Source of the DNA: Bradyrhizobium lupini
GTDB lineage: Bacteria > Pseudomonadota > Alphaproteobacteria > Rhizobiales > Xanthobacteraceae
Length of the DNA: 64,000 nt
Assembly (NCBI RefSeq): GCF_040939785.1
Contig: NZ_CP162553.1
Span: 6,963,001-7,027,000, forward strand
Reading direction: 5' to 3'
Shown here piece after piece: positions 14,748-53,596 of this stretch (position 1 is the stretch's first letter; each line of letters starts with the position of its first letter). The notes beneath the pieces were generated by a model. The model did no database searches. It was not told the origin of the DNA and was given only the letters and a program-made list of their open reading frames with translations. Made by a program: the position numbers and the translations under genes.

Positions 14748-14752
14748 CGTGC

Positions 14753-17392: not shown

Positions 17393-17489
17393 GGCGGCTC
17401 CTCCTGCTCAACTCCTCCGCGGATGCTTGTCATCATGCGGAATTGGCTTCAAATTCCATAGCATTAGGCGATCAGCACTATGGATAGGT

Positions 17490-20485: not shown

Positions 20486-20486
20486 G

Positions 20487-21702: not shown

Positions 21703-21751
21703 AGCATAGTCCTTTCAAATTTCTGCATGTTACGGTTGCGATGCTGCGGCG

Positions 21752-23254: not shown

Positions 23255-23270
23255 GGTCCCCATTCCTTCC

Positions 23271-23798: not shown

Positions 23799-23922
23799 GG
23801 TTCCCCTCCCTGCGAAATCGCATCAGAAGCCAAATTGCACGACGCAGATTGACTAAGGCGTCTCAACTTGCGGTCGGCAAAACATTCTTATGTCCAGTTA
23901 GTGCCTTCGAGAGAAAGGTGGT

Positions 23923-27453: not shown

Positions 27454-27458
27454 CGATC

Positions 27459-28022: not shown

Positions 28023-28034
28023 CGAGACGATGTG

Positions 28035-29405: not shown

Positions 29406-29454
29406 ACTCTCGGCGACCCACGAGGTTGCCTACAATTTCTAAGTGGATATAGGA

Positions 29455-32315: not shown

Positions 32316-32359
32316 GCACACACCGCCGGATCAGGTGGTTTTGCGACGGGTACGGTTAG

Positions 32360-36594: not shown

Positions 36595-36600
36595 CGCGCG

Positions 36601-37377
36601 ATGGTGCATATTCCGTCCTTGTTCGATGTTGGCAGCGTCACCCATGCCGGACGCGTGCGGGAGCGGAACGAGGATTCATGTTTGGTACGAACCGACGTTG
36701 GTCTGTGGGCGGTCGCCGACGGCATGGGGGGGCACGAGGCCGGTGATCTCGCCAGTCGCATCGTAGTGCAGTCGCTCGACGCTATCGCCACACCAGAATC
36801 AGCCGCAGACCTGCTGGCGGAATGCGAGGAGCGGCTTTTCAGCGCAAACCAGCAGATACTGGCGCTTAGTCATGAACGACAGGGTGCCACCGTCGGGACC
36901 ACAGCGGCGGTTCTGCTCGTTCGCGATAACTACTATGCCTGCATATGGGCGGGTGACAGCCGGGTCTACCTTATTAGTCGCGGCGCAATTCGCCAGGTCT
37001 CGCATGATCACAGCGAACTGGAGGAGCTGATCGCAAAAGGTGCGCTGTCGCGCGAAGACGTGAATGATTGGCCGAGCAATGCCATTACGCGTGCCGTCGG
37101 TGTCGCCGATGATCCGGAATTCGAGGTGGTGACAGGCCCGGCGGAGCCAGAAGATATCTTCGTGATCTGCAGCGATGGCCTGACCAGGCACGTGCAGGAC
37201 GACGAGATCCTGCAGCACGCGGCTACGCGACGCGCCCAGGCGGCTTGCGATGACATGCTCGCGCTGGCTCTTGATCGTGGCGGGCTTGACAATTTGACGA
37301 TTGTGATCGTGCGACTACTGACGCCACGATCTCAGGGGACGACAAGATCTCCGCTCAATCGGGAGCCGCAACCATGA
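36601..37377 (+). CDS. pppA: PP2C-type Ser/Thr phosphatase PppA
   Basis: 258 aa. PPM-family metal-binding motifs are present: RERNEDS (20-26), AVADGMGGHEAGD (38-49), WAGDSRVYLI, FVICSDGLT and the closing GGLDNLTIVIVRL. It is a cytoplasmic Mn/Mg phosphatase that would reverse phosphorylation of Fha by the kinase encoded next, with which it overlaps by 4 bp. It starts 7 bp after tagF. Intact catalytic aspartates suggest activity. Confidence 0.93.
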   Translation: MVHIPSLFDVGSVTHAGRVRERNEDSCLVRTDVGLWAVADGMGGHEAGDLASRIVVQSLDAIATPESAADLLAECEERLFSANQQILALSHERQGATVGTTAAVLLVRDNYYACIWAGDSRVYLISRGAIRQVSHDHSELEELIAKGALSREDVNDWPSNAITRAVGVADDPEFEVVTGPAEPEDIFVICSDGLTRHVQDDEILQHAATRRAQAACDDMLALALDRGGLDNLTIVIVRLLTPRSQGTTRSPLNREPQP

Positions 37378-39182: not shown

Positions 39183-39191
39183 CCGGCACGC

Positions 39192-40250
39192 TCAGAATGT
39201 TCCGATCACCAGGATTTTCAGGTCGGCATCCGGCTTGAAGTCGCTTGCCGTATATTCAAGCGTGTTTCCAGTAGCGGACGATGCCTTTAGCCGCCCAGGA
39301 CAGAAGCTCACCAAGCGGTCGCTGCCGCCTGGGTCGATAGTCAGCTTGAATGACCGGATCGGCCCAGCCCAATTCGCGCCGGTCTTGAGCACGTACGATA
39401 TGCGCCGCTCCTGGAGATTTGCGCCGTTGGTCTGGTTATTGCCCGTGCGCTTGTCGAGCTCGGCAAGGAACGTATCCTGGATGCAGTATTCTTTCCGGTA
39501 ACGCGCAACTTCCTGACCGAGTGCGCTGCTGCGGCGCAGGCTCGAGCGCAGAATGGTGTCAGGACTGGAGCCGACGCTCGGCCGGTACTGGTGTTCGACC
39601 GTGACGCTGCGCACGGGCGGAAACAACTGCTGGCGCACAGCCGAGGTCTTGACGGTCCACCCCGGCGCATATTGCTGGCGACCGTTGTCGCTCATTCCGG
39701 CAGGCATCAGAAGTCCGTCGTCCACAAGCCGGGTCCGGGTCGCCGCGGGCAGGTCGGTCACCCGGATCTCGCGGCCACCAATCGGCAGCAGCGGCAACTT
39801 GAGTTCGCGGAGCAGGGCACTGACATCCCTGTTGCCAACCATGGCGCGCTGATCGACGGTCAGCGGCGCCGGGTTGCCATCGACCTTGGTCTCGAATTCG
39901 ACGAAGTTGATCGGATCACTTGACGGCAATGCAACATTCTCAGCCTCCGACAGGTCGATGTCGGGCAGCGGAAAGGCAACATTAAGCGTGACCGGCTTGG
40001 CGGTGAGGTTCGCGAATTGGTAGCGAACGCTGATTCTGTCGAGCGTGATACGAAGGTTCTCGCTCTCCATGGCCACGTCATTGGTGCGTACGAACTGGAG
40101 CCCACCGATCGACAATTCCGCAGCCGAGTCGTTGGCGCGTGCCGGCCAGCCTGTCGCAACGAGCAGCGCGACCATCAGGGCCGGTATAAGGAACGACAGT
40201 CGGGCGGAGGGTTCGTTCGGCAAGCTAGTCTGTATGCGGCGTCGCAGCAT
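39192..40250 (-). CDS. DUF4424 family exported protein
   Basis: 352 aa from the ATG at 40250, chosen because GGAG lies 7 nt upstream; the frame stays open to 40334. The signal peptide (about 18-40) ends PARANDSAAE. The DUF4424 domain is recognised by ELSIGGLQFVRTNDVAMESE, PVTLNVAFPLPDIDLSEAENVALP and KLPLLPIGG. The role is unknown; the family is exported and probably beta-rich. Convergent with ppkA with a 9-bp gap. Confidence 0.85.
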   Translation of the reverse strand: MLRRRIQTSLPNEPSARLSFLIPALMVALLVATGWPARANDSAAELSIGGLQFVRTNDVAMESENLRITLDRISVRYQFANLTAKPVTLNVAFPLPDIDLSEAENVALPSSDPINFVEFETKVDGNPAPLTVDQRAMVGNRDVSALLRELKLPLLPIGGREIRVTDLPAATRTRLVDDGLLMPAGMSDNGRQQYAPGWTVKTSAVRQQLFPPVRSVTVEHQYRPSVGSSPDTILRSSLRRSSALGQEVARYRKEYCIQDTFLAELDKRTGNNQTNGANLQERRISYVLKTGANWAGPIRSFKLTIDPGGSDRLVSFCPGRLKASSATGNTLEYTASDFKPDADLKILVIGTF

Positions 40251-40273
40251 TTGCCGGCTCCATCCGATGCGGG

Positions 40274-40555
40274 TCAATCGATCGGTTGATAAAGATCGCC
40301 CCATTCGGGCTTCCAGACCCCGTCTGGATCGCACACCACGAGCGCGAGCTTGACGTCGTTAGCCAGCCGGATCGCGCCGCGAAAAGCATCCTGAGCCGGC
40401 AATTGCGCGCTGACTTGGTCGGTGGTCAGCCGCCCTTGGCTCGCGGCGGCAGGCAGCACGATCGCTCCGGAGGCACCGTCACTGTCGCGTTTCAGGAGCA
40501 GCGTGACCGCGTCGGGCTGGACTTCGTTCACTTGCTCAAATCTATTCCGGGCCAT
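40274..40555 (-). CDS. Small hypothetical protein, 93 aa
   Basis: The ATG at 40555 has a strong GGAGGA about 5 nt upstream, which decides this short start inside a longer open frame. The product begins ARNRFEQVNEVQPDAVTLLLKR and ends WKPEWGDLYQPID. It is soluble, with no signal peptide. It is located 23 bp upstream of the DUF4424 gene, so the two may form one leftward transcript, divergent from the NlpC/P60 gene. Family not recognised. Confidence 0.7.
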   Translation of the reverse strand: MARNRFEQVNEVQPDAVTLLLKRDSDGASGAIVLPAAASQGRLTTDQVSAQLPAQDAFRGAIRLANDVKLALVVCDPDGVWKPEWGDLYQPID

Positions 40556-40715
40556 GGTTTTCCTCCGCAAGCTGAAGAAATTTCGGACTATCACCGTCCA
40601 GTGATAAAATTGAACGCGATTGAGATTGCTCACCACTAATTGACGCGCGGCATCAACGGCATCTCGGATTAGTCGATCCGACGCGGCGATCGGTTCGGGG
40701 TACATTGAGGCGAAT

Positions 40716-42443
40716 ATGCTTCGTCCAAAACATTGGATCTGGGTCTTCATCGTTAGCGCGGGCATTTTCGGAACCAAGGCGCACGCCGACGATACTGTCG
40801 TACGCAGCTTTACCGGCGGTTCGGCTGCTTCCATGGTCGGCATAGTCCCGGCCAGCGAGGACGTGGAACTCGCGGGACCGCAAGCACTCAGCGCCGACGG
40901 GCAGGGCAACCTGTTTTTGCTCGATCAGATCAACGGTCGGATCATCCAGTTTGACCCGAAACAGCCGAACTCCGATCCCGACGTCCTCAAGATGCCGAAA
41001 GACGTCCAGCCGACCGATCTCGTCGTCCATGACGACGACATAATGGTTTGGGACGGCGGCGTACGGACGCTGAAGGCGGCGCCGGGGCAATCCACGCGCG
41101 GACTCGGCGGTGACGTGATCCAGCTTGAGGAGGTCTCGAGCCGTGGGGCAAACGACCAGGTCGCCGTCTCCGCTTTCGCCCAGATGGGATCGCAGGCACC
41201 CGGCAGCGCGGCGGACCTGCTCGATCAGAACACCCGCGCGGCCATCATCAGGACGACCCGGCAGCCTGACCGGCAATACGTGGCTTCTCGAAGCAAGGGC
41301 TCGGTGATCGCCGACATCATTCCGGACAAGAGCAATGCCAGCGTACGGGTCGAGATCCAGACCATGGTCACCAACGAAACCATCGGCCAACTCGGCCTGC
41401 GCGTGCGCAACCAGCTCGGCACGGTGGAGTTTCTCGAGATCGACAACAGCGACCGCTTCTACGTGCTGGCCGAGGACGTTCCGCCATCAGGAAAGAACGC
41501 CTCCACGTTCGTCGCACGCTATGCCGCGAACGGGCGTCTCGAGGGAATCTATGAGCTTCCTCTGGAAAATACGCCGCTGACCAGACGGTTCGTCACGGTG
41601 TCGGGCAGTGGCGATGTCTATTTCCTGCGAACCAAGCCGGACGGTATCGAAGTGATTGGCGTCGGGTTCCGACCTCTGACCAATGCCTCGATTATCGACG
41701 TGCGGCCGTCGCGAACGACGACGGCGCCGGCACCACAATCCGGCGTCAAATTTGACGCTTCGGCCGCCGTGAGGCCGTCCAATCGCCAGCAGGCGATCGA
41801 GACCGCGTTTGCGTTCGAGGGTATCCAGTGGAAGCTGACGCAGGCGAACTACGGCAACGATCCCGACAGCCAATGCAGCGGCTTCAGCCGTGTTCGTCGG
41901 CCGTGGTATCTGCAGGGAAAAGTGAACCAGGAGGTGCGCGGCGTACCGTATTGCTGGGGCTGCCACGGTTCGCTCGCGAACTTCCGGCAGCGGATCGAGA
42001 GCGGAACGCTGGCTGGCAATGTGTGCACCCGCAATGCGCCACGGCCCGATGTGGCGGGCGTCGACTGTTCGGCATTCGTCAGCGCCGCGTGGGGGCTCTC
42101 CGTCCACTATACGACTGCAGCTATCCCCGCGATCGCTGCGCCCGTGGCAAATCCTTGGGACCTGAGGCCCGGCGATGCGCTGAACAAGCCAGGCTCGCAC
42201 GTGATGCTGTTCCTGCGGTTCACGCCTGATCGCAAGGCCGAGGTGATGGAATCCTCGACCGGTGGCTGCAACGGCCGCGTCTGTCGCAACGTCTATCCCT
42301 TGGCGAGCTTGCTCGCGCGCGGCTATGTTCCGGTCCGCTTTCGGGCGTTCGCGGATGATCAGACGACGGTTTCAGCGGGCGCCTATCAGGAGCAGACTGA
42401 ACAACCGCCGGCGGGCCGCAAAACGGCAGGCAAAAGGCGCTGA
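40716..42443 (+). CDS. Exported beta-propeller/NlpC-P60 protein
   Basis: 575 aa; ATG with GAGG about 5 nt upstream; signal peptide 1-24 (AHA/DD). Residues about 25-330 form NHL/propeller-like repeats (ALSADGQGNLFLLDQINGRI, LEIDNSDRFYVLAEDV, VSGSGDVYFLRTKPDG). The C-terminal 200 residues resemble NlpC/P60 Cys-peptidases: GVDCSAFVSAAWG (C451), LRPGD, and GSHVMLFLRF (H495), plus extra Cys residues that could form disulfides. Such enzymes cleave peptidoglycan peptides. The signal peptide argues for periplasmic action rather than injection. It may remodel the wall for T6SS assembly or be a housekeeping hydrolase (inference). Confidence 0.8.
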   Translation: MLRPKHWIWVFIVSAGIFGTKAHADDTVVRSFTGGSAASMVGIVPASEDVELAGPQALSADGQGNLFLLDQINGRIIQFDPKQPNSDPDVLKMPKDVQPTDLVVHDDDIMVWDGGVRTLKAAPGQSTRGLGGDVIQLEEVSSRGANDQVAVSAFAQMGSQAPGSAADLLDQNTRAAIIRTTRQPDRQYVASRSKGSVIADIIPDKSNASVRVEIQTMVTNETIGQLGLRVRNQLGTVEFLEIDNSDRFYVLAEDVPPSGKNASTFVARYAANGRLEGIYELPLENTPLTRRFVTVSGSGDVYFLRTKPDGIEVIGVGFRPLTNASIIDVRPSRTTTAPAPQSGVKFDASAAVRPSNRQQAIETAFAFEGIQWKLTQANYGNDPDSQCSGFSRVRRPWYLQGKVNQEVRGVPYCWGCHGSLANFRQRIESGTLAGNVCTRNAPRPDVAGVDCSAFVSAAWGLSVHYTTAAIPAIAAPVANPWDLRPGDALNKPGSHVMLFLRFTPDRKAEVMESSTGGCNGRVCRNVYPLASLLARGYVPVRFRAFADDQTTVSAGAYQEQTEQPPAGRKTAGKRR

Positions 42444-42479
42444 ACCCAGTGTGTCGCCAGAGCTACAAAATGGGTAGGC

Positions 42480-44279
42480 ATGATGTCGAGGTGGATCACG
42501 ATGCGGATGCCCAGAGGACTTGACTGCGGGATCGGGCGGCTGTGCGCCACCATCGGGCTCGCCGCGTTGATCGGACTGACAATCCCGCGGGCGCATGCGG
42601 CAGGAGATTTGTCGCTCAGCAATCCAGATGGGGCGGCGGTGCGTGCGCTCGTGATCGGGATCGACGACTACCAGCACGTGCGCAAATTGAAGGGTGCGGT
42701 CGCTGACGCTACGGACATCGTGACCAGCCTTAAATCCATGGGGGTTGGCGACGTCGTCGAACTGACTAACGCGCAGGCCGACAGGGCAGGCGTCCTGCGC
42801 GAGATCAGTGCACTGGTGGAGCGGACCAAGAACAACGACCTCATCTTTCTGTCGATCGCCGGCCATGGCACCCAGGAGCCGGAGCGCGTCAAGGGCGCGG
42901 AGCCGGACGGGATGGAGAACGTGTTCCTGCTGCCAGGCTTTGAAACCACGCCAACCGGGTCCGTTGAGCGGGTTCTGGGCAGCGAGTTCAACCATTTCAT
43001 ACGGCAGTTCGAGCTGCGCGGAGCGAGGGTGATCTTCGTGGCTGACACGTGCCACGGTGGCGGTATGGTGCGCGACATCGATCCGCGTGCCGCTGAGATG
43101 AGCTTCCGGCAGGTCCCGCGCTACACGTTGCTGGTCGACGAACTGAAGCCGGTGTCGGACAGCAACGATCCGAAGTCTGAACTTGACCTTGACCACACGG
43201 CGTTTCTGGCCGCGGTGGACCGCTACACCAAAGCGCCGGAAGTCCGCATCCCTGGCATCGATGGCCTACGCGGGGCTCTCAGCTATGCGGTCGCGCGTGC
43301 GGTGGAAGGTAGCGCGGACATCAATCACGATGGGAAGGTGACGCTTAAGGAGCTTTTCAGCAACGTTCGGCAGGTGGTCTATCAGCTCTCGGACCAGCGC
43401 CAGAATATCGTGACTGTATCATCGCCAGCTCAGACGCCGGATACCGACGTCGCCTTCGGATTGACGCGCGGTGTCGTGCTGATTCAGGGGCCGGCCGCGA
43501 GAGCGGCCTCGGGTCAGGCCGGAGCCGGGGTGCCCGTCGATGGACAGGCGCCCGCACCGTCGGCTGTCACGGCCAAGGCTCCAACCATTCCGACCCTTGC
43601 GGGGGCGGCCAAGGAACTTCCGATCGCCGGCGCGCCGGGGCCTCTACGCCTCGTTGCACCAATCCGGCTGGCGGCGCTGGACGGCAAGACTAGCTATTTT
43701 GTAAGCGTGAAGCCAAAAGATGTTTCCGTGCAGGCTGTTCAACCGACGGACAATCCCGACCTGATATGGGATCCTGTGTCGCACGACGTGATCGCTTGGG
43801 GTGATGTGGTCGCCTACGGGATGGACGTTGCCAGCCTGCCGACGGTGATTGATAGGACTGCGGCAATTCGTGAACTCAAGCGCATTGCGACACGGTCGCC
43901 GCAGGTGATGCGTATTTGGCCAGACGATCGCCAACAACGTGCTGGCCAGACCATCGAAGTTGACTTGTCTGATGTGGCATCAAGGGCGGTGCTGCTGTTC
44001 AATGTGTCCGGCGATGGCACCATCCAATTGTTGTATCCGGTGGGTGCTGATGCGGCGTTGGCCAGATCGGCGAGTTTGCGCCTACCGCTCAGGGTCGGCG
44101 AGCCGTTCGGTGCGGAACAGATCGTTGCGGTGACTTCGCAGCAACGCATGGTCGAGCTTGAGACAGCCCTAGTGCAGTTCAACCGGCGTCGCGCCTCGGG
44201 GCAGGTGATCAAGAGTCTCGAGCGTTACTTGCCCGCGGACGCGCGAATCGCCTCGATCGGCTTCTTCAGTGCTCCCTGA
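42480..44279 (+). CDS. Caspase-like (C14) protein with DUF4384-like tail
   Basis: 599 aa; two adjacent ATGs (42480, 42483). The signal peptide is about 20-40 (AHA/AG). The peptidase C14 domain (about 53-330) has the catalytic dyad H129 (IAGHGTQ) and C191 (ADTCHGGG), and an EF-hand-like loop, DINHDGKVTLKE (about 280-291). An Ala/Pro linker leads to a C-terminal beta domain (about 480-580: ASRAVLLFNVSGDGTIQLLYPV, FGAEQIVAVTSQ) resembling DUF4384. It lies 37 bp after the NlpC gene and 19 bp before a stand-alone DUF4384-like gene, so one operon. An exported metacaspase-like protease is likely; substrate unknown. Confidence 0.87.
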   Translation: MMSRWITMRMPRGLDCGIGRLCATIGLAALIGLTIPRAHAAGDLSLSNPDGAAVRALVIGIDDYQHVRKLKGAVADATDIVTSLKSMGVGDVVELTNAQADRAGVLREISALVERTKNNDLIFLSIAGHGTQEPERVKGAEPDGMENVFLLPGFETTPTGSVERVLGSEFNHFIRQFELRGARVIFVADTCHGGGMVRDIDPRAAEMSFRQVPRYTLLVDELKPVSDSNDPKSELDLDHTAFLAAVDRYTKAPEVRIPGIDGLRGALSYAVARAVEGSADINHDGKVTLKELFSNVRQVVYQLSDQRQNIVTVSSPAQTPDTDVAFGLTRGVVLIQGPAARAASGQAGAGVPVDGQAPAPSAVTAKAPTIPTLAGAAKELPIAGAPGPLRLVAPIRLAALDGKTSYFVSVKPKDVSVQAVQPTDNPDLIWDPVSHDVIAWGDVVAYGMDVASLPTVIDRTAAIRELKRIATRSPQVMRIWPDDRQQRAGQTIEVDLSDVASRAVLLFNVSGDGTIQLLYPVGADAALARSASLRLPLRVGEPFGAEQIVAVTSQQRMVELETALVQFNRRRASGQVIKSLERYLPADARIASIGFFSAP

Positions 44280-44297
44280 CTCTTAGGGGAGCACGCC

Positions 44298-44945
44298 ATG
44301 CCGTCATCGCAGTCGATCCGCCGCAAGCGAGCATGGTTCGCATTCCTGCTGCTACAGGCGGGCAGCGGACCTGCGTCCGCAGCACCGTTGCCGACGGGGG
44401 CGTTGCATATCGGCACGACGTACGTACCTTGGCTTTGGCCCGCACAAGCGGTGCGCAGGCAGACCAATACCGCGAGTGTGTCCCTTCAGATCCTGCCGAG
44501 TCAGACCGTCAACGTCGGCGCCAAGGTCTCGTTCGGCGTCACCGCCAGGAGGCCTGGATATCTCATTCTGGTTGACGTCGACTCGGAAGGGCGGATGTCC
44601 CAGATCTTTCCGACCCCCGAGCTATTGGCGCAGTCGAACGAACGCGACATTAATCTCGTCAAGCCGGGTGTCGAATTTGTCGTCCCTGCTCCGGCGGCGC
44701 GGCAGCGTGGTTTTGAATATGTCGTCGCACCGCCGACCGGGTCCGCAGTGATGATCGCCATCCTGAGCGAGCTGCGCGTGCAATTGCTCGATTTGCCGGA
44801 CATGCCTCGCAAGCTGGAAGGTCAGGCGGACGCGTTGAGCTATCTATCGGCCTGGACCAGTGAGCTGCGCGTGCCGGACAACAGCAGCGGAAAGCTTGTG
44901 ACGAACAATTGGTCGTTCGACGTCAAATCCTATTCCATCAAGTGA
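44298..44945 (+). CDS. Exported DUF4384-like protein
   Basis: 215 aa; ATG with AGGGGAG about 8 nt upstream; signal peptide about 1-28 (ASAAP). The mature protein is almost entirely a DUF4384-like domain: VNVGAKVSFGVTARRPGYLILVD, EGRMSQIFPTPE, FEYVVAPPTGSAVMIAILSE. The same layout is seen at the C-termini of the caspase-like protein just upstream and the T6SS kinase. It probably acts with the caspase in the periplasm (inference from operon position). Convergent with the alpha/beta hydrolase gene. Confidence 0.8.
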   Translation: MPSSQSIRRKRAWFAFLLLQAGSGPASAAPLPTGALHIGTTYVPWLWPAQAVRRQTNTASVSLQILPSQTVNVGAKVSFGVTARRPGYLILVDVDSEGRMSQIFPTPELLAQSNERDINLVKPGVEFVVPAPAARQRGFEYVVAPPTGSAVMIAILSELRVQLLDLPDMPRKLEGQADALSYLSAWTSELRVPDNSSGKLVTNNWSFDVKSYSIK

Positions 44946-44963
44946 GTCCTGTGAGGCTTGGGG

Positions 44964-45950
44964 CTATAGCTTGCTCAGTCGGCTGAAGAAGCCACCGCGG
45001 GCGATCATGTAATGAATGTCCTTTGGAAAGGGAAAAGCACTGCGAATGTTGGAAATCGCGTGCTGGAGGAATTCCCCGTCCAGCGGCGCAGGCTTATGCC
45101 GCGGTTGGTCCGCGACCTGCGGTATCATGAAGCGATCCACGAAAGCCGCGTCAAGATCGTTGACCCTGACCATCTGTCCAAATGCCGGGAACAGGTCGTA
45201 ATGACCCAAGCTTACGTTGAGATTCTTGAGGGCAGGGCGCTGAGGCTGGGTTTGATTGCCATCGGCCGTCGCCAGCCCGCGCCCGATCAGGTCCAGCTTC
45301 ACCGATTGCGGGAGAGTTGACGGACCATACACGATCTCGAGGGCGTGGCCGCTCTGCCCAGATAGCCACTGGTACCAAAAGGTCGCATCGTCGGGCCGCG
45401 CATTGGCACCGTAAAGGCAATCAAATCCCCAACAAGCCGTCAGCTTCCCCTGATACTTTCCGAGGCTCCCGACGAGATTGCGCATGCCGTTACCACCGCC
45501 GGAGTGGCATGCGATGATGAGCTTGCCGATTTGGAGCTGAGGAATGGACGTCGAGGAGATACCCAGGAACCTGGCCAGAGCTCGAAGGATCTCCTCGAGA
45601 TAGCGTTCACCCCAGTTCGCGGTGGCCAGGTCGGACACGCTGTAGTTTCCGGCAAAGGTGTTGCCCACAGCATATTCGTAGCCCAGGAAGGGCGCGATGA
45701 GCACCACGTCCTTGCCGGAATCCCGGACCTGTTCGCGCAGCCGCGCTGGATCGTTGTGGAAAAGGAATTCATGGTTTTTGACGTAGAAGCCGTGAAGCCA
45801 GATCACGACATCGAACTTGGTGGCGGCTGTTGGGTGCTTTGGCGGAAGATAAACCGCCGTTGGTTTCATGCCGGGCGCCTGCCGCTTCGTGAAGAGCGTC
45901 ACCCCAGGAAAGGCGTTGGCGTCCTTTTGCTCAAGCTCACACGCAACCAC
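44964..45950 (-). CDS. Alpha/beta-hydrolase-like protein, 328 aa
   Basis: GTG start at 45950 with GGAG about 8 nt upstream. Fold signatures are VVIWLHGFYVKNH (oxyanion strand, about 48-60), IIACHSGGGNGM (nucleophile elbow, S150) and SLGHYDLFPAF (likely catalytic His, about 251). The elbow is C-H-S-G-G rather than the classical G-x-S-x-G. There is no signal peptide. Within an accessory block next to a T6SS it could be an esterase or lipase effector, but no VgrG, PAAR or immunity-like partner is adjacent, so this remains speculation. Confidence 0.72.
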   Translation of the reverse strand: MVACELEQKDANAFPGVTLFTKRQAPGMKPTAVYLPPKHPTAATKFDVVIWLHGFYVKNHEFLFHNDPARLREQVRDSGKDVVLIAPFLGYEYAVGNTFAGNYSVSDLATANWGERYLEEILRALARFLGISSTSIPQLQIGKLIIACHSGGGNGMRNLVGSLGKYQGKLTACWGFDCLYGANARPDDATFWYQWLSGQSGHALEIVYGPSTLPQSVKLDLIGRGLATADGNQTQPQRPALKNLNVSLGHYDLFPAFGQMVRVNDLDAAFVDRFMIPQVADQPRHKPAPLDGEFLQHAISNIRSAFPFPKDIHYMIARGGFFSRLSKL

Positions 45951-46107
45951 GCAGGTCGCTCCGATTCGGCCACATCAGGCTTGGGACTCTGACGTTAGCT
46001 CGGCCACTTGCCATGCTTGCGATCCCAAATCCACCGGGCCTGATGGCTCCGACGCGCCGTGACAACTCGGCGCCGTGCCAGCGCGCAGTTGTGTAGGAGC
46101 GGTGAGG

Positions 46108-47952
46108 CTAGTGGCATACCTCGACATTGGCCTCGTTGCCTGGCCCGCCACCGCCGCGATATTCGAGATGGCAGCCGCGCTGGACCGGACGGCAGCTGCT
46201 GGCGTTGCATATGATCTGAGGACTGGCCGTCGCATGGCCCACCGCAGCGCCATAGCCGCCTGCGCTCGCCTGCGCCCGCTGACGCAATGGCCGATCCTGC
46301 CGCTGACTGTCATTGCTCTTGGCGGCATTGACGGGCCTGGCGCGCTGTTTCTCGCATTCATTGTCGTCGTTGAGGAACGAGCCCCTTGCACAGGAGATTC
46401 TGCTGCAGTGGTCGCCGTCAGCCTTGTAGCCATGATCACAGATCAGGGGACAGACCCGGGACGGCTTGAGCTTGATTGCGTCAAGTGCGTCGAGACTTGC
46501 GAGCTTGGCGTCAAATTTGGTTCCGGCGTGCTGGTTGAAGAGAGCCAAGGAGCGCTGGGAGGCCGCATTCCATCGGCCATCTACGCTACCGGTGAAGCAG
46601 CCGACGCGGTTCAATTCGCTTTGTACGGATTTGGTGATATCGGCTTTTGCGATATCGGTCTGGCGCGGCTCGGCGCTGAGTGCGGCAAGCTTTGGCGGCG
46701 TATTGTCGTCAGCCAGCGCAGCGACTGTAGGATTGTCCGCGAAGGCACTCCCAACAGCCGGCTTATTCCCGGAGAGAGCCGCAACGATTGTAGATTCGGA
46801 CGCAATTCGTTTCCGTTCTGCCTCGGTGGCCTGCTCCTGCGCGGCCTGCTTCGCCTTCTCGGCGGCAATTCGGGCGTCTTCCGCAGCCTTCAGATCCGCG
46901 GCCGCCTTCTCTTGGTCGGCACGCTGGGCGCCCTGCGACATCAGCCGAGTTTTCTGCTGTTCCGCCTGCTGCGCCTTCGCTGTTGCCGCGACGCGTGCGT
47001 CCTCAGCATCGAGCTGATTAAGCTGCAGCTTGGCAAGATTTGCGTAGTATCCGTCCGGATGCTGGTTCAGGAACGCGTCCAGAGCGGGCTTGTTGCGTAG
47101 TTGCAAGGCCAATTCGTAATCACGACGAATTTCTGCCTGGGGGTTGGCTGCTTGCACCGGCTCATCAGCCTTGGCAGCGGGAACAAGTGCAACGTCTTCG
47201 CCGCCCAGCGAGCCGTAGACATAGGGCTCCTGTCGGTTGCCGGTGGCTTGCAAGACATCATCGCGGACGAAGCCGAAGGCCCTACGCAAGTCGAGCCCCG
47301 GCTTTGCGATGTACTTTACGAGAGCCGTCGCATACGGACTATTCTTGCTGTTGCCATCGAGGGCGGTTAGTCCGGCTTTCGCGGCAAACGCGATCAGCGT
47401 GTTGGAGACGGCGGGTTCGACCCTGGCCAGCCCGCGGCTGATTGATCGAGAGGCAACTGTACGCTTCATCGAATCGGCAAACGGATTGTTGCGGCACGCG
47501 TCGACGATCACCACGCGCAACTGTCTCGCAGGCTCGATTGCCAGCAGGACGCGGTCGAGTGAGAATGCTTCGTCATAAATATCAGTGTCACGTTCGAGTC
47601 TGGCGTCGGTCGGGATCAGATAGTTTGTCCCGTCGATCTCGATGCCGTGGCCAGCATAGTACACCAGGGCTATGTCCGCATTGCGCGCCTGATCGGCGAA
47701 TTCTCTCAGGGCCCGCCGCATATCGGTCGCGGCGAGGTTGAGCCTTGAGTCAACCACATCGAAACCTGCGCCCTTCAAGGTTTCAGTGATGGCGGCAGCG
47801 TCGTTGGCCGGGTTTGGGAGCAGAGGGGCATTCTGATAGTTGGCATTGCCAACCACCAAAGCCACGCGCTTTGTCGCCCAGGCTGGCTGGGCTGCCAGTA
47901 ACAGCGAAGCGGCAAGAAGAAGCAAAACTCGAAGGTGCCTGTATAACCTCAT
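46108..47952 (-). CDS. Caspase-like (C14) protein with PG-binding-like tail
   Basis: 614 aa from the ATG at 47952, chosen because it gives a compact signal peptide (RLYRHLRVLLLLAASLLLAA); an ATG at 47976 adds eight residues. The caspase domain carries H102 (YYAGHGIE) and C153 (VDACRNNPF). It is followed by a long Ala/Glu/Lys coiled coil (about 310-380), then a peptidoglycan-binding-like segment (SVQSELNRVGCFTGSVDGRW, about 450-510) and a Cys-rich tail (CPLICDHGYKADGDHC). This architecture recurs in rhizobia. It is exported to the periplasm. Catalytic dyad intact; substrate unknown. On the opposite strand from the first caspase gene. Confidence 0.87.
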   Translation of the reverse strand: MRLYRHLRVLLLLAASLLLAAQPAWATKRVALVVGNANYQNAPLLPNPANDAAAITETLKGAGFDVVDSRLNLAATDMRRALREFADQARNADIALVYYAGHGIEIDGTNYLIPTDARLERDTDIYDEAFSLDRVLLAIEPARQLRVVIVDACRNNPFADSMKRTVASRSISRGLARVEPAVSNTLIAFAAKAGLTALDGNSKNSPYATALVKYIAKPGLDLRRAFGFVRDDVLQATGNRQEPYVYGSLGGEDVALVPAAKADEPVQAANPQAEIRRDYELALQLRNKPALDAFLNQHPDGYYANLAKLQLNQLDAEDARVAATAKAQQAEQQKTRLMSQGAQRADQEKAAADLKAAEDARIAAEKAKQAAQEQATEAERKRIASESTIVAALSGNKPAVGSAFADNPTVAALADDNTPPKLAALSAEPRQTDIAKADITKSVQSELNRVGCFTGSVDGRWNAASQRSLALFNQHAGTKFDAKLASLDALDAIKLKPSRVCPLICDHGYKADGDHCSRISCARGSFLNDDNECEKQRARPVNAAKSNDSQRQDRPLRQRAQASAGGYGAAVGHATASPQIICNASSCRPVQRGCHLEYRGGGGPGNEANVEVCH

Positions 47953-47976
47953 GGCGAACACCCAACCTATGCTCAT

Positions 47977-48658
47977 CGAATGATAACGTCGCGAAGATGG
48001 CCGCGTAAGGCATGATTACTGAATTCACACGCCACTGGCCGCTGGCCTATCTCCGTACAGTACCAGTTTCGAGCCCGATCCATTCCTATGTGTTGTCTGG
48101 CACTGCGCTCGCGTTCAAACGGCACGGAAGAAATCGCGGGCCGGCGCTGTGTGCCGTTTCATGAGGATGATGGGCACCCGCCAGTATCGATGTCTCGCGC
48201 TGGCGAATTAAGCTTTTGAAATTATAGGATTATTGCACTTAAGGCGTGTTCGCGGCAGTGCAGCAGAGCCTCTGGCTTAGTTCAAACGAAGATTCCGCGG
48301 TCGGCAGATCGAGGGGACGTGAAGTCCAGGACGCCGGCTTGCGGGTCAATCTCTCGGTTACAGCTTGCGCGGAGGTCAGGAGCCCGTCAGTTCGGCTTTC
48401 CATGGTCCCCGGTGCTCGATCTTCAGGTTCCTGCCGGACGCTCGCCCCGGCAACTGCTCCTTCGCAATGAGGGAACCAGTCTCCGAGTCGCGAAGGCGGG
48501 CCTTGGTCGACCAGTCGATCGCGTCGGTGGCCGCTGCCGGAAGTCGTCAGTGCGCAAGTCGCCAGCCGACTTAATCAGAAAGCCCTGAATATAAGCCGCT
48601 CTATTTCGAACGATAGCGTACGGAGATACAATCGCAATTCCGAACTTTGGAGAAGTTG
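47977..48658. other. 682-bp gene-poor divergent spacer
   Basis: Lies between the divergent starts of the second caspase gene and the metallopeptidase gene. Parts are clearly more AT-rich than the neighbourhood (for example around 48205-48245). I see no gene with a credible start, no tRNA and no clear palindrome. It must hold the promoters of both flanking genes. Confidence 0.4.
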
Positions 48659-49219
48659 ATGCCCATTCCGTTGAGGATTTACATCACGCCATTTGCCGAT
48701 AGGGGGAGCGTTGAGCCCGGGCAATGGAGCAGCGAGACAGCCAAGAAGGCGCTCGACGTGGTCAATACGATCTGGTCAAAGGCCAAGATCGCGTTCGTGA
48801 TCAGCGATTGCTTGATGGAGAAGCCGCTCGACATGGCAAAGAGCGCGCGCAGCAATGACCAGCGATTGCTGGGTGTTCTTGCCTCTCGGCACGATCCGGA
48901 CAATGCCGTCCACATCTACCTCGTCAATTCGATTGAAAATCTGGCCGCCGGTGGAAGCTCATACCCCAATAGCCAACCGGAGCCGGCAAGCTTCGTCCAA
49001 TGGTATGGCAATGACCACGCCAATGGACGCGCCTGGGCTCACGAGCTCGGCCATCTACTGAGCCTCGATCACGTCGAGATCGACTATTCCAATGAGAAGC
49101 AGGCGGCGCGGCGTGTCAAGAACCTCATGACGATAGGATTGAGCGTCGGTTCTGACCTGACGGGCCAGCAGATTGATGCAGCCAAGGGTTCAAAGCTGGT
49201 CAAGCGATTTGGTGGATAA
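48659..49219 (+). CDS. Metzincin-type metallopeptidase-like protein
   Basis: 186 aa; the ATG at 48659 has GGAG 6 nt upstream and is preferred to a TTG at 48647. It contains the full extended zinc motif HELGHLLSLDH (H128, E129, H132, H138) and a Met-turn candidate, KNLMTIG (about residue 161). This is the HExxHxxxxxH layout of metzincins such as matrixins. No signal peptide or propeptide is visible, so the protein is either cytoplasmic or exported without Sec. It stands alone between two gene-poor stretches. Peptidase activity is inferred from the motif. Confidence 0.78.
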   Translation: MPIPLRIYITPFADRGSVEPGQWSSETAKKALDVVNTIWSKAKIAFVISDCLMEKPLDMAKSARSNDQRLLGVLASRHDPDNAVHIYLVNSIENLAAGGSSYPNSQPEPASFVQWYGNDHANGRAWAHELGHLLSLDHVEIDYSNEKQAARRVKNLMTIGLSVGSDLTGQQIDAAKGSKLVKRFGG

Positions 49220-49868
49220 GTCCGTGGCCGGCCGCAGAATTTGTCAGCTCCGTCGTTCTGCACATTGCGCGCCTTCGCCAGGTTCCTATTCGCGAGATCC
49301 TCGTCGCTCCAATCCAGGCGTTGGGCGCAAGAGTCCATGATTGCGATCACGCTGGTAGCCACTTCTCCCGCTTTGGGAAAAGCCATCCGCGATTAATATG
49401 CAGATGACCCCAACGATGAGATCACCAACGACCATATCAAGTGCTTCCGGGATATTGCAGCTGCGCTAGACGACGCTTACCGTTTCGCTCTATTTTTGAT
49501 GGGCGATCAGGCAGACGCAGAACAAGCCGGCAAACGTACTATCCAGATGCACTGCCGATTTAACGTGGTTGGGTAGCGGCCCTCCAAGTCTAGGGCGATC
49601 GCGCAAAGTCGTCGTGCTGTACGAATTCCAGGGCCCGTCCTATCGCGACTCTCTTATATCGTAGCTGCTCCGATCGCGACAGTGATGTCGCGTATTGCAC
49701 AAGGGCATACTCCTTCGGTGCCAGATCGAAATGGGAGCAAGATCACAACCTTCGTTGCAGCTGTCGATTTGAACTTCTCTTTTCCTGCCTGCACTAAAAC
49801 AAGGTGGTCCTGCGGCCGTCCGGACGATCACCGACGAGTTCCTATTTGTCGATTGCAGGTCGAAGAGA
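49220..49868. other. 649-bp gene-poor stretch with possible gene remnant
   Basis: No complete gene is seen. A + strand open frame without start, 49397-49573, reads ...LDDAYRFALFLMGDQADAE..., faintly like region 2 of ECF sigma factors. It could be a decayed fragment, but it is too short for a firm call. A minus-strand frame (49084-49386) overlaps the metallopeptidase gene and is not supported. The region looks like degraded or laterally acquired DNA. Confidence 0.3.
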
Positions 49869-50828
49869 ATGTTCCACAAAACCGGTCCGGGCAAGGTTGA
49901 CGTCGATCTGGATTTTTCGGGAGTGGGGGTTTTGCACGCGCGGCTTTGGAATTTCGATTTCGATGACTTTGCCGGCTACCAGTTTCGGGGCTTGAAGACA
50001 GAGCACTTCGAATTTCTCAAGAACAAGGTGGTTCCCCTGGTGGAGCACGACGCTGGTCAGATCTGGATGACGGGATCCGCGAGCCGGATCGGTACGGCTG
50101 ATTGGAATATGACGACATCAGCCAACCGCGTCATTACGGTCGCGCGGTCTCTGTCAGAGATGGGCATCCGCCCGGAGCAAATGCAGACGCACGCCATCGG
50201 CAATACGCAGACGGCAAATCACAGGCTGGACGAAGACAACGATAGATCAGTGGTCCTTTGGGTTCTGCCTAAGGTCTATTTCGAACCGATCATAAAGCCA
50301 GACTTGCCGCGACCCGTTCCGCCGAAGCCAAAGGTCAGTCGAAATTTCAAGATAGCCATGCTGCTTGAGGTCGACGGTTCGATCTCGTTTGCAGCGAGAG
50401 CGGCCATCAAGCGCATCGTGAAGGGCAGGGCCGGAGCCGGGATTGCGTTTGCCAGCGCGTTGTTCTCCATATGGGACACGGAAAACAATTTGAAGTGCAC
50501 CTACGTCTATGCCGCGGTCGGCCTAGGCTTCGGCTTGACCCTTCCGAAGACCGGCGGCAGATCGGGTACTCTGCATGGCCCCTGGAATTCGTTTACGACC
50601 GAAAAGCCCATCTCCTGTTCGCAGTTCGGCAAGTCAATGCGCTTTACGACTATCGGGATAGGGGACTTGAGCAAGAACTGGATCCTGCTGGAAACGCCCA
50701 GAGGAGTGAAGGACGTCTACTTGAGCATCAGCACGGGCACGACCATCGGCGGCGGCGCGTCGACCTACCCAGCCCATTTGAGCGCTTTCGTCCCGCTAGA
50801 GCGACCGAAGCCGTTTGGCGGGCCTTGA
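49869..50828 (+). CDS. OmpA-like domain protein with unknown C-terminal domain
   Basis: 319 aa; ATG with GAAGAGA just upstream. Residues about 28-134 resemble an OmpA/MotB C-terminal domain: LKTEHFEFLKNKVVPLVEH, MTGSASRIGTADWN, SANRVITVARSLSEMGI and DNDRSVVLWVLP. A Pro/Lys linker (about 140-155) leads to a beta-rich domain (160-310) containing VGLGFGLTLP, LHGPWNSFTTEKPIS and STGTTIGGGAS, which I do not recognise. There is no signal peptide, which is unusual for a wall-binding protein. Last gene before the tRNA-derived boundary. Function unknown. Confidence 0.7.
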   Translation: MFHKTGPGKVDVDLDFSGVGVLHARLWNFDFDDFAGYQFRGLKTEHFEFLKNKVVPLVEHDAGQIWMTGSASRIGTADWNMTTSANRVITVARSLSEMGIRPEQMQTHAIGNTQTANHRLDEDNDRSVVLWVLPKVYFEPIIKPDLPRPVPPKPKVSRNFKIAMLLEVDGSISFAARAAIKRIVKGRAGAGIAFASALFSIWDTENNLKCTYVYAAVGLGFGLTLPKTGGRSGTLHGPWNSFTTEKPISCSQFGKSMRFTTIGIGDLSKNWILLETPRGVKDVYLSISTGTTIGGGASTYPAHLSAFVPLERPKPFGGP

Positions 50829-50962
50829 GTGAATCGGCTCATCATAACCTTTAGCCGGCGTCGGCGAGGGAGCTCCGGGTTGACCCGCCGTAGTGATCTC
50901 AATGGGTCAAAAAACGCCGAAAATGTCAGAATAGCCTTTGAAGACACTACAGTATTTCGAGA

Positions 50963-51006
50963 CTTCCAAGCTGAATACGAGGGTTCGATTCCCTTCACCC
51001 GCTCCA
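50963..51006 (+). other. tRNA-Gly(TCC) 3' fragment, probable att site
   Basis: 44 nt match the 3' part of a tRNA-Gly with anticodon TCC: anticodon loop CTTCCAA (50963-50969), T-arm GAGGG-TTCGATT-CCCTT (50979-50995), acceptor strand CACCCGC (50996-51002), discriminator T and CCA (51004-51006). The 5' half (expected to start GCGGGTG) is absent; the sequence to the left is unrelated. Such 3' fragments are left by tyrosine integrases that insert into tRNA genes. The intact tRNA would lie at the far left end of the element, outside this window. Not a functional tRNA. Confidence 0.85.
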
Positions 51007-51015
51007 TCCCAACAA

Positions 51016-52316
51016 TGTCCGGCCCGAAGACATGGGTAACGGAACGTACCTAAGACATGGGTGACAGCCTCGTGCCGAACGGGTTGTCGAGAGGTTGCAG
51101 GGTTTTCTGCTCCAGGTCGAAGTATCCCAGATCATAGTGCATGAAGCTGACGAGCCAAATGCCCTCGTCGACCTCCTTGATGCCGAGCTTCTGGCCCGCC
51201 AGCACGGTTGAGATGTTGATCCGCTTGCGGTGCAGGCAAAGGCGGCCGCACGCGGTTACAAGGACCTCGCGATCGTGGAACGGATAGGTCAGCTCCGGCA
51301 GGCCGGCATAGGAACGTGCTGAGGCGACGTAGAGCTCGGCAGGACGTTTCATGTCGAGGGCCTCGTGCGGGCGTTCGGAGTTGAACTCGCGGACGAAGGC
51401 ATCGAAGCGTTCCTGCTGCTGCAAGCTATTGCCGCCCGGCGGCCGGGTGGTTTCCTTTTTGAGGGTGAGGTGCATGCGCTCATGACGTCCGTTCTGTTGC
51501 GGGTGGCCCGGCTTGATGCGTTCGATTGCAATACCAAGTCGGAGCCACCACACCGAGAGCTTGGAGAGGTTGAACAAGGCGTTGGGACTGGCGAAGGGCA
51601 CGCCGTTGTCGGAGCGAATGGCGAGCGGCAGGCCGCGCTCGAGGAACAAACGCTCGAAGGCAGTAATTACAGGGTCTTCACGCGTTGAATCGAGCGCTTC
51701 GCACAACAACAGGAAGCGCGAGGCATGATCGGTAACGGTGAGCGGATAGCAGTAGCGGCCATTGCCGAGCTTGAACTCGCCCTTGAAGTCGGTGCACCAC
51801 AAATCATTGGGTCCGGTACCCGTGGACAGCGGCGTGCCGCGCGCGCGGTGGCGCGGCCCGCCGCCACGCTTGACCAGGCCATGGCGATCGAGCACCGCAT
51901 GGATGGTGCTTTTGGCCGGAATCCTGACATCGCCATCGAGCCGCCGGACCAGCAGTTCGCGGATCTTGCGCGCGCCCCAGTGCGGTTTCTCGGCTTTGAG
52001 GCGGACAATCAGACCCTCGATTTGCTCCGGGAGCTGATTGGCATAGCGTACCGGCCGTCTGGACCGATCGCTCAGGGCGGCCAGCCCCTGCTCTTTGTAG
52101 CGATCGAAAATCTTATAGCCGGTCTTGCGGGATACGCCGAACTCCCGGCACACATCCGTCATGGCTTCCCCATCCAGAAGCCTGGCCACAAAGCGAAGGC
52201 GTTCTTCCATGACCGAACTCGCTTTCCACGGCATCCACACCTCCCGCAGAACAAAAGCGGAAAGTGTAATCCATGTGTCCGGTACGTTTTGTCACCTATG
52301 TCTCGGGCCGCTCACA
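51016..52316 (-). mobile_element. IS481-family insertion sequence
   Basis: About 1.3 kb with one transposase. The ends are imperfect inverted repeats. Left, from 51016: TGTCC-GGCCCGAAGACATGGG. Right, read inward from 52316: TGTGAGCGGCCCGAGACATAGG. Both continue to a shared ACGTACC. Repeated AAGACATGGGT units follow the left end and may be transposase binding sites. No clear target duplication is seen, so the outer limits are good to a few bases. It inserted 10 bp downstream of the tRNA-Gly fragment. Confidence 0.85.
51050..52234 (-). CDS. IS481-family transposase
   Basis: 394 aa from the ATG at 52234, with GGGAGG 5 nt upstream. An N-terminal helix-turn-helix (about 8-60, DVCREFGVSRKTGYKIFDRY) is followed by an rve integrase core with the DDE triad D149 (DLWCTDFKGEF), D209 (IRSDNG) and E252 (PQQNGRHERMH). 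The frame is intact with no internal stops, so the element may still be mobile. The stop lies inside the left end region of the element, as is usual for compact IS elements. Confidence 0.95.
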   Translation of the reverse strand: MPWKASSVMEERLRFVARLLDGEAMTDVCREFGVSRKTGYKIFDRYKEQGLAALSDRSRRPVRYANQLPEQIEGLIVRLKAEKPHWGARKIRELLVRRLDGDVRIPAKSTIHAVLDRHGLVKRGGGPRHRARGTPLSTGTGPNDLWCTDFKGEFKLGNGRYCYPLTVTDHASRFLLLCEALDSTREDPVITAFERLFLERGLPLAIRSDNGVPFASPNALFNLSKLSVWWLRLGIAIERIKPGHPQQNGRHERMHLTLKKETTRPPGGNSLQQQERFDAFVREFNSERPHEALDMKRPAELYVASARSYAGLPELTYPFHDREVLVTACGRLCLHRKRINISTVLAGQKLGIKEVDEGIWLVSFMHYDLGYFDLEQKTLQPLDNPFGTRLSPMS

Positions 52317-52333
52317 ATTGATGCATCTTGATT

Positions 52334-52732: not shown

Positions 52733-53596
52733 TTACTCCCTGTGGTCGTCGATTTCGGGGGCGACCTGTCCGTAGTTCAGCAGGGCCACGAGGGTCGTTC
52801 CGCCCAGAATATTGCCGAGGAGTGTCGGTACGAAGAAGTCCGAGGCATATTGCGAGAGCGACGCCAGGCCGCTCTGCACCAGGAAGGCGCACTCGACCGA
52901 GCCCGCGATGATGTGCGCGAACTGGCCGAGCGCGACCACATAGGTCATCACGACGACGAGGTGCGGGCGCGATCCCTTCACGGCAGGCAGTAGCCACGCC
53001 ATCAAGGCGATCAGCCAGCCGGCAAAGATCGCCCGGACAAGGGTCGTCGCGAACGTACCCTCGATGGTGTGGCGGCTGAGATCGACGAAGGCGCCCACGA
53101 TGCGGGGTTCGAAGATGCTGGTGTGCGCGAGCACGGATCCAACGGCCCAGGTTCCTGCGATGTTGGAGGCGAGGACCAGGCCCCATAGCTTGATCACGCT
53201 CCCAAGCGTGCCGAGATCCCTGTTGTGCAACAGCGGCAGCATCGGCGTCAGCGTGTTCTCGGTGAAGAGCTGCTGCCGTCCCAGCACCACGACCAGGAAA
53301 CCGACCGTGTAGCCGAGCGGAGCCACCAGCCGTCGGGTGGCCTCGTCGGAAATCAGCGCGTGAAACTCGCCCTGGACAATCAGGGACAATCCCATCGAAA
53401 GGCCGGCGGCGAGGCCGGACAGCACGATGGCCCACCATCGCCGTTCCAGTTCCTGCTCACCCTCGGCGCGGATTGTCTCATGGATCAGCGCTGCGCTAGG
53501 CCGGCTCTGGGATTCGATCTGTTTCGTCTGGCGCCGCGAGACGCCGTCGAGCTTTGAGGCTGGATTGAAGGAGGCGCCGTCGCCAGGCTGGTCCAC
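52733..53596 (-). CDS. Formate/nitrite transporter (FNT) family channel
   Basis: 287 aa; GTG start with CAGGAG about 8 nt upstream. About six TM helices occur after a soluble N-terminus (1-50). Family features are WWAIVLSGLAAGLSMGLSLIVQG, the GRQQLFTENTLTPMLPLL loop, and LGNILGGTTLVALLNYG at the end. It resembles the YfdC-like branch of FNT proteins, whose substrate is not established; formate, nitrite or another small anion is possible. Inner membrane. Not in an obvious operon except with the 68-aa ORF. Confidence 0.9.
   Translation of the reverse strand: MDQPGDGASFNPASKLDGVSRRQTKQIESQSRPSAALIHETIRAEGEQELERRWWAIVLSGLAAGLSMGLSLIVQGEFHALISDEATRRLVAPLGYTVGFLVVVLGRQQLFTENTLTPMLPLLHNRDLGTLGSVIKLWGLVLASNIAGTWAVGSVLAHTSIFEPRIVGAFVDLSRHTIEGTFATTLVRAIFAGWLIALMAWLLPAVKGSRPHLVVVMTYVVALGQFAHIIAGSVECAFLVQSGLASLSQYASDFFVPTLLGNILGGTTLVALLNYGQVAPEIDDHRE

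What the first reader, a model, noticed from the sequence alone, without database searches (positions are those of the whole stretch)
50963..51006. tRNA-Gly(TCC) 3' remnant marks the right end of a possible genomic island
Forty-four bases from the anticodon loop to the CCA end of a tRNA-Gly(TCC) are present without the 5' half. Because the fragment reads on the + strand, a tRNA-targeting integrase would leave the rebuilt intact tRNA at the left end and this copy at the right end. The element should therefore lie to the left and could include the T6SS and the accessory block at 39-51 kb. The gene-poor, AT-richer DNA at 48-51 kb fits this. No integrase is in the window, so it would be further left or lost.
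Basis: partly seen in the sequence, partly recalled or inferred. Interest (0 to 1): 0.7.

Follow-up and report, generated by a model that had tools for sequence, protein, structure and literature searches.

The report
tRNA-seeking insertion sequence at island end
The tRNA fragment is the far end of a 73-kilobase block of acquired DNA in a Bradyrhizobium chromosome, and the small transposon beside it belongs to a group that mostly lands at one fixed spot just past the end of a tRNA gene or tRNA relic.

Summary
Window 50963-51006 is an exact 44-bp copy of the 3' part of tRNA-Gly(TCC). The intact gene lies 22.3 kb left of the window, with decayed remains of an integrase just inside; relatives of that integrase often sit beside the same tRNA. 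The two copies bound a 73,337-bp island holding the T6SS. Seven relatives have a single tRNA-Gly with right-flank sequence within 2.3 kb; G128 is almost base-for-base the empty site.

In a genome scan, 44 of 64 distinct copies of this subgroup have an intact tRNA on the opposite strand 47-51 bp past the transposase end (random positions: 0 of 12,800), with 14 tRNA identities; 8 more have a T-arm motif there, 12 neither. Of 18 plasmid copies examined, 9 lie 33-36 bp from a T-arm motif (GGTTCRANTCC) without CCA. Seven sister elements (37-46% identity) have no tRNA nearby. Likely mechanism: the transposase, or something bound there, reads T-arm DNA. Ten literature searches found no description; ISfinder was not available.

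The parts
50963..51006 (+). attR: 44-bp 3' remnant of tRNA-Gly(TCC), anticodon loop to CCA; its intact partner is at G000:C1:6940596-6940669, 22.3 kb left of the window
1..50962 (.). right 51 kb of the 73,337-bp island; the left 22.4 kb lie outside the window
   Evidence: closed-up locus in relatives; junction of G128
14753..39182 (.). T6SS cluster: ClpV-like ATPase 14753-17392 (-), TssG 17490-18554 (-), TssF 18518-20539 (-), TssC 21752-23263 (-), TssA 23923-25263 (-), VgrG 25585-27453 (+), FHA protein 28032-29405, TssK 29443-30792, TssL 30765-32315, TssM 32360-35896, TagF 35878-36594, PP2C phosphatase 36601-37377, Ser/Thr kinase 37374-39182 (all +)
   Evidence: Pfam; ClpV is named from its AAA/ClpB domains and its place
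51007..51015 (+). 9 bp between the remnant's CCA and the IS; the same bases follow CCA in the empty site of G128
51013..51015 (+). target duplication CAA, left copy
51016..52314 (-). IS481-like insertion sequence, 1,299 bp, identical to the copy behind tRNA-Ser(GGA) at G000:C1:4063359
51050..52240 (-). transposase, 396 aa (HTH, rve/integrase core, IS481 leucine zipper; C-terminal beta domain about 320-385 in a weak model)
52315..52317 (+). target duplication CAA, right copy
52733..53596 (-). formate/nitrite transporter, first gene of the conserved right flank used for the empty-site test

Best explanation
Shown by comparison: a 73.3-kb island entered the chromosome at the 3' end of the tRNA-Gly(TCC) gene. 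The intact gene now stands at the left end next to the decayed integrase, and the original 3' part stands at the right end as the 44-bp remnant. Inferred: a tyrosine integrase did this by recombination within the 44-bp repeat, the island supplying the new 3' half. Shown: an IS481-like element stands 9 bp behind the remnant, and copies of its subgroup mostly stand in this position and orientation behind tRNA 3' ends, intact or relic. Inferred: the transposase, or a factor it contacts, recognises the T-arm DNA motif GGTTCRANTCC and directs insertion about 34-35 bp downstream, so that a tRNA relic serves as well as a gene. Not settled: whether the IS came before or after the island, and whether the 73 kb arrived at once.
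For: Island: two exact 44-bp copies in direct orientation; integrase remains beside the intact copy and relatives of it beside the same tRNA in other genomes; flank genes 75.5 kb apart here but 456-3,006 bp apart in G134, G143, G076, G095 and G136; G128 junction nearly identical to the own flanks without IS; 19 of 146 genomes have TssC at 96-100% identity, in G112 and G123 away from this locus. IS: four of five matches in the own genome stand behind a tRNA 3' end (the fifth, 64 bp at 78%, was not examined); genus, 36 distinct ends: 21 intact tRNA, 7 T-arm motif, 8 neither; genome scan, 64 distinct copies: 44, 8 and 12, against 0 and 90 of 12,800 random positions; 9 of 18 plasmid copies at a T-arm motif without CCA, against 135 of 33,000 random positions; an empty counterpart of one such site in two Ti plasmids.
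Against: The integrase family has no Pfam, NCBIfam or solved-structure match; calling it a tyrosine recombinase rests on one source name (P0062) and my reading of conserved residues. In G089 and G141 the locus holds 11.6 and 14.3 kb of other genes, and in G010 a first remnant lies between the tRNA and the T6SS, so the 73 kb could be composite. For the IS, 12 of 64 and 8 of 36 copies show neither tRNA nor T-arm motif by the rule used, although some of these keep a tRNA-like acceptor end by eye; in 10 of 52 genus loci the IS end was not recognised. Target duplications were seen in 12 of 19 copies. No transposition was observed.
Confidence: 0.88

Rival explanations
1. The tRNA fragment was brought or made by the insertion sequence rather than left by an island.
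For: Fragment and IS are only 9 bp apart, and IS copies elsewhere stand beside tRNA fragments.
Against: The other own copies stand beside their own, different tRNAs. G128 has tRNA-Gly followed by the very bases that lie between remnant and IS and beyond the IS here, so fragment and right flank belong together without the IS. The partner repeat lies beside integrase remains.
Confidence: 0.03
2. The 73 kb are a composite: two or more elements entered at this tRNA in turn, inner remnants were lost, and the T6SS block came separately from the part beside the integrase.
For: G010 has an intact integrase between tRNA and a first 44-bp remnant 4.7 kb on, and the T6SS block beyond it. G036, G119 and G145 share the integrase end but, in the 20 kb fetched, nothing further.
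Against: Only one remnant was found in the 102 kb searched here.
Confidence: 0.35
3. The IS inserts anywhere, and copies behind tRNA genes are those that survive because the site is harmless.
For: tRNA 3' flanks are known as tolerated sites (recalled).
Against: In 44 of 44 intact-tRNA copies the distance is 47-51 bp and the tRNA is on the opposite strand; the other side has a tRNA in 1 of 48. Plasmid copies without a tRNA stand at a T-arm motif at the same distance. Seven sister elements and 20 other IS481-profile hits of the own genome have no tRNA in their loci.
Confidence: 0.04
4. The target is not read as DNA by the transposase but through a host protein bound to tRNA genes, transcription, or the tRNA itself.
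For: For ISAjo2-type elements at dif sites, contact with bound XerC was proposed (PMC10132070, passages read). In tRNA genes the distance from T-arm to CCA is constant, so the two cannot be told apart there.
Against: Nine plasmid sites have the T-arm motif without CCA; these could, however, be old tRNA relics.
Confidence: 0.25

Closest known systems
tRNA-integrated genomic islands and ICEs of Bradyrhizobium (tRNA-Val, -Ile, -Pro and -His symICEs; PMC9239051, passages read)
   Same: Integrase next to the tRNA, att repeat at the far end, cargo replaced between strains
   Different: Other tRNA (Gly-TCC); integrase decayed; no symbiosis genes were looked for; conjugation genes not searched
IS481 family
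   Same: DDE transposase with IS481 domains, TG...CA ends, single gene
   Different: Score 219.1, just under the 224-bit cut-off of NF033577; fixed tRNA or T-arm target and orientation; target duplication of 3-4 bp in the 12 copies where one was seen
ISAjo2 group of the IS1202 family (PMC10132070, passages read)
   Same: One-gene IS at a fixed distance and in one orientation from a conserved chromosomal site
   Different: The site is dif/pdif, not tRNA; no sequence comparison was made here
Tn7-like transposons and CASTs with tRNA att sites (PMC11406308, passages read)
   Same: Insertion beside tRNA genes; TnsB of ShCAST is the best fold match of the weak transposase model
   Different: Those use TniQ/TnsD or a guide RNA with several proteins; this IS has room for one gene only
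Dada superfamily and tRNA-directed retrotransposons of eukaryotes (PMC3706591, search listing only; PMC5911963, search listing only)
   Same: Targeting of small-RNA genes as safe sites
   Different: Eukaryotic and unrelated; mechanisms recalled, not examined

Membership tests
tRNA-integrated genomic island | Direct repeat of a tRNA 3' end at both ends, one copy rebuilding the gene | tested here: met
   44 bp exact, 73,337 bp apart
tRNA-integrated genomic island | Integrase gene next to the intact tRNA | tested here: met
   Decayed remains only; relatives beside the same tRNA; the class (tyrosine recombinase) is inferred
tRNA-integrated genomic island | Empty site in relatives | tested here: met
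   7 of 12 fetched loci have right-flank sequence within 2.3 kb of the tRNA, 2 have 11-14 kb of other DNA, 3 had no right-flank match in the piece fetched
Integrative conjugative element | Relaxase and conjugation genes | not tested
   The left 22 kb were read as ORFs only; no conjugation profile was searched
IS481 family | Transposase profile NF033577 over its cut-off | tested here: not met
   219.1 bits against 224; 220
IS481 family | Pfam domains of the family (PF13011 leucine zipper, rve core) | tested here: met
   PF13011 30.0 (cut-off 22.2), PF13683 56.4 (26.5), PF00665 49.7 (32.6)
IS481 family | Inverted ends TG...CA and short target duplication | tested here: met
   Own copies: CAA and CGT; 12 of 19 others 3-4 bp
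Tn7-like transposon | Separate TnsC ATPase and TniQ/TnsD target protein in the element | tested here: not met
   A 1,299-bp element with one 1,191-bp gene
IS1202 family (ISAjo2 group) | Sequence similarity of the transposase | not tested
   No IS1202-family sequence was compared

The most novel reading that the evidence does not exclude
A subgroup of IS481-like elements, spread over alpha-, beta- and gammaproteobacteria and apparently beyond, is a one-protein tRNA-gene homing system: its transposase reads the conserved T-arm (B-box-like) DNA, GGTTCRANTCC, and inserts in one orientation about 34-35 bp downstream, just behind CCA. It thus finds a harmless site in any genome, and also behind the tRNA relics that islands leave.
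Probability: 0.6. Interest if true: 0.8.

Novelty: new variant of a known kind. Interest (0 to 1): 0.62.

Why it matters
In the papers seen here, bacterial elements that use tRNA genes as safe sites are integrase-driven islands or multi-protein Tn7-like transposons. A single 396-residue transposase that sends its element behind many different tRNA genes would be a simpler system. It would make directly testable how a DDE transposase reads a fixed target motif without helpers, which also matters for targeted insertion. The elements may mark the far ends of tRNA-borne islands, since several copies in the genus stand behind tRNA relics. For this genome, the result shows the T6SS region to be acquired DNA and gives its borders.

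Tried and rejected
Integrase: PF00589 in the own genome gave 17 hits, the nearest to the island near 6.17 Mb. The integrase remains were found by reading ORFs next to the tRNA and tested by relatives. Pfam, NCBIfam and solved-structure searches did not recognise the family.

That the IS made the remnant was rejected through the G128 junction. Survival bias for the IS position was disfavoured (see rivals). An automatic count of target duplications was off by one base and gave 4 of 15; the corrected count is 12 of 19, with ends not found in one further copy. The transposase model is weak (mean pLDDT 65.2, pTM 0.51); its best fold matches (TnsB, IstA) have TM-scores near 0.2 and support only the general class. 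BLAST of two non-tRNA plasmid sites found copies without the IS for one (two of them examined) and only itself for the other.

Order of events: the two full IS copies are identical over 1,299 bp, so either may be the source; I could not tell whether the IS landed before or after the island.

Literature: ten searches (one search was about pSymB only, one search was rejected for a sign in a term). No title or abstract start listed describes IS481-like elements at tRNA genes. The library holds open-licence PMC papers only; lists were cut at 8 to 20 papers; ISfinder was not available.

Coverage limits: of 52 IS places listed in the genus search, one (G051:C57) was not fetched. In one search only the best 80 of 202 relatives were returned. 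Of 84 plasmid records, 18 loci with the close relatives were examined; hits in Leptospira and Enterobacter were seen in the listing only.

Full report
Place. The window is 6,963,001-7,027,000 of a 7.83-Mb single-contig genome. Its genus is Bradyrhizobium: contig lengths of G096 equal those of B. neotropicale BR 10247 records, and G123 has the 9,207,384 bp given for B. japonicum USDA6 (figure from the abstract start of PMC3927601 in a search listing).

The remnant. Window 50963-51006 equals the last 44 bases of tRNA-Gly(TCC), CCA included. The intact gene is at 6,940,596-6,940,669 on the same strand. In the 102 kb from 6,925,001 to the end of the window the 44-mer is found only at these two places. 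The CCA ends are 73,337 bp apart.

The left end. From 76 bp behind the intact tRNA lie the remains of an integrase gene on the minus strand (L007:15745-16756). tblastn with the G036 relative gives pieces of 94-96% identity in different frames and a longer one at 70%; with the longer G145 query the match begins only at residue 76. The open 168-residue piece, searched in 146 genomes of the genus, matched in 37 at E <= 1e-20. Of 30 loci fetched, 12 contain tRNA-Gly(TCC) (one of them, L100, an odd.2 kb away), 4 contain tRNA-Lys(CTT) and 14 none. The family has no match in Pfam, and the open piece none in NCBIfam. Of the 120 relatives listed, I saw one (P0062) with the name 'Tyr recombinase domain-containing protein'; the other names seen are 'hypothetical protein'. 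R247, R360, H361 and Y392 are invariant and H383 nearly so in 25 aligned members; that this is the catalytic set of tyrosine recombinases is my reading.

The empty site. The hybrid histidine kinase left of the tRNA and the formate/nitrite transporter right of the remnant lie 75.5 kb apart here, but 2,990 bp apart in G134, 2,694 in G143, 3,006 in G076, 456 in G095 and 769 in G136; in G089 and G141 they are 11.6 and 14.3 kb apart. Twelve loci were fetched; each has one intact tRNA-Gly(TCC). In seven the right-flank sequence begins within 2.3 kb of the tRNA; among them G118 and G128 lack the transporter stretch and continue with sequence like window 53.7 kb onward about 0.1 and 0.35 kb behind the tRNA. 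In three (G078, G071, G034) no right-flank match was found in the piece fetched. In G128 the bases after CCA are TCCCAACAATTGTTGCATC; here they are TCCCAACAA, the IS, CAATTGATGCATC.

Cargo. The island holds a T6SS: TssG, TssF, TssC, TssA, VgrG, FHA protein, TssK, TssL, TssM and TagF by Pfam, a ClpV-like ATPase, a PP2C phosphatase and a Ser/Thr kinase. TssC matched in 31 of 146 genomes at E <= 1e-60; 19, the own included, at 96-100% identity. In G112 and G123 the block is collinear over 34 kb, to the edge of what was fetched, at 91-92% DNA identity, while the left-flank kinase of both is 84% identical (protein). No tRNA lies in the 40 kb fetched around the block in G112, G123, G122 and G017. 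In G010 the block lies behind the same tRNA-Gly(TCC), beyond a first 44-bp remnant that encloses an open integrase gene. This fits repeated arrivals at this tRNA and leaves open that the 73 kb are composite.

The insertion sequence. A 1,299-bp element, 51016-52314, starts 9 bp after the remnant, is flanked by CAA on both sides, and is identical to a copy at 4,063,359 flanked by CGT. That copy stands 10 bp behind tRNA-Ser(GGA). Two truncated copies stand 9 and 10 bp behind tRNA-Ser(GCT) and tRNA-Thr(CGT). These are four of the five matches in the genome; the fifth, 64 bp at 78%, was not examined.

Generality in the genus. 52 loci were examined (50, and the two truncated own copies). In 10 the IS end was not recognised; 4 ends lie at contig ends and 2 are duplicates. 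Of 36 distinct ends, 21 stand behind an intact tRNA (20 of them 9-11 nt behind CCA, one truncated IS at 3 nt), 7 behind a T-arm motif in place, this window among them, and 8 behind neither by that rule. By eye, L146, L148, L158 and L163 of the 8 keep a tRNA-like acceptor end with CCA.

Generality beyond. In a scan of 84,980 species genomes, the best 80 of 202 loci were returned. Twelve were set aside for short flank or partial match and 4 as duplicates. Of the remaining 64, 44 have an intact tRNA on the opposite strand 47-51 bp past the transposase end, of 14 amino-acid identities; 8 more have the T-arm motif in place and 12 neither. Random positions in the same loci give 0 and 90 of 12,800; the other side of the IS has a tRNA in 1 of 48. 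Copies with an intact tRNA come from alpha-, beta- and gammaproteobacterial records and one Acidobacteria MAG (L228); the Nitrospirota copy (L245) counts among the 12. Many of these records are MAGs, whose assignment of an IS contig is uncertain.

What is recognised. Of 84 plasmid records with a relative, 18 loci were fetched. Five stand behind what looks like an intact tRNA (three called by ARAGORN; L293 and L295 judged by eye), 3 behind a relic with CCA, 9 behind a T-arm motif without CCA, and 1 (L282) behind nothing recognisable. In the nine, the motif begins 33-36 bp before the IS (counted); random positions in these and two further loci give 135 of 33,000. One of the nine sites exists without the IS in pTi1078 and pTiK1_93, and the flanks overlap by 3 bp, as a 3-bp duplication would give. 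The relative on pSymB of S. meliloti 1021 stands behind a tRNA-Arg(CCG).

How special it is. Seven related elements of 37-46% identity have no tRNA in the fetched locus; two of them have a T-arm-like motif at other distances (38 and 131 bp past the gene), and their IS ends were not mapped. None of 20 other, mostly partial and weak, IS481-profile hits in the own genome has a tRNA in its locus. The preference seems to belong to one subgroup; the copies counted in the genome scan are 62-92% identical to the query.

Mechanism. The most likely reading is that the transposase, or something it contacts, recognises T-arm DNA and inserts in one orientation about three helical turns downstream. Pfam shows helix-turn-helix domains at the N-terminus; the model has a beta domain at 320-385. 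The model is weak; its best folds are TnsB of ShCAST and IstA. Which part reads the target is not known. Precedents for the behaviour, not for the family, are ISAjo2-type IS at dif sites (PMC10132070, passages) and Tn7-like elements with tRNA att sites (PMC11406308, passages).

Novelty. Ten searches of open-licence PMC papers (named under Tried and rejected) listed no description of tRNA targeting by IS481-like elements. One paper notes that all 16 copies of the IS481-family ISMex2 lie on the chromosome of Methylobacterium extorquens AM1 (PMC2680597, one passage); this would fit but was not tested. The trait may be known in sources not available here.

Noticed in passing
L304-L306 (G010:C1:4041548 and 4046268): G010 has the same tRNA-Gly(TCC) with an exact 44-bp remnant 4.7 kb on, an open integrase gene between them, and the T6SS block beyond: apparently tandem elements.
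   Followed up: partly
L007:13296-15243: The histidine kinase left of the tRNA is split over two overlapping ORFs in different frames here, while relatives have one ORF of about 800 codons.
   Followed up: no
L280, L281, L283, L284, L291, L292, L294 (just past the IS): Plasmid sites with a T-arm motif but no CCA share a further TCAAGGCG-like stretch about 3 bp behind the motif; its origin is unknown.
   Followed up: partly
L146, L158, L163, L177, L180, L213: Recurrent short relics ending in CGCTACCA, like the end of tRNA-Met(CAT), directly before the IS: perhaps ends of islands at that tRNA.
   Followed up: no
L084, L085, L086 (G134, G143, G076): Three close relatives without the island carry a decayed end of the same kind of IS 10 bp behind tRNA-Gly(TCC).
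   Followed up: partly
window 42480-44279 and 46108-47976: Two caspase-like (PF00656) proteins in the accessory block behind the T6SS.
   Followed up: no
window 56060-56697: Two small overlapping ORFs that look like a PIN-domain toxin and its antitoxin (VapBC-like; named by eye, no profile search).
   Followed up: no
L278 (S. meliloti 1021 pSymB 1313806-1317903): A relative of the IS (residues 30-396 matched) stands behind a tRNA-Arg(CCG) gene on this megaplasmid.
   Followed up: no
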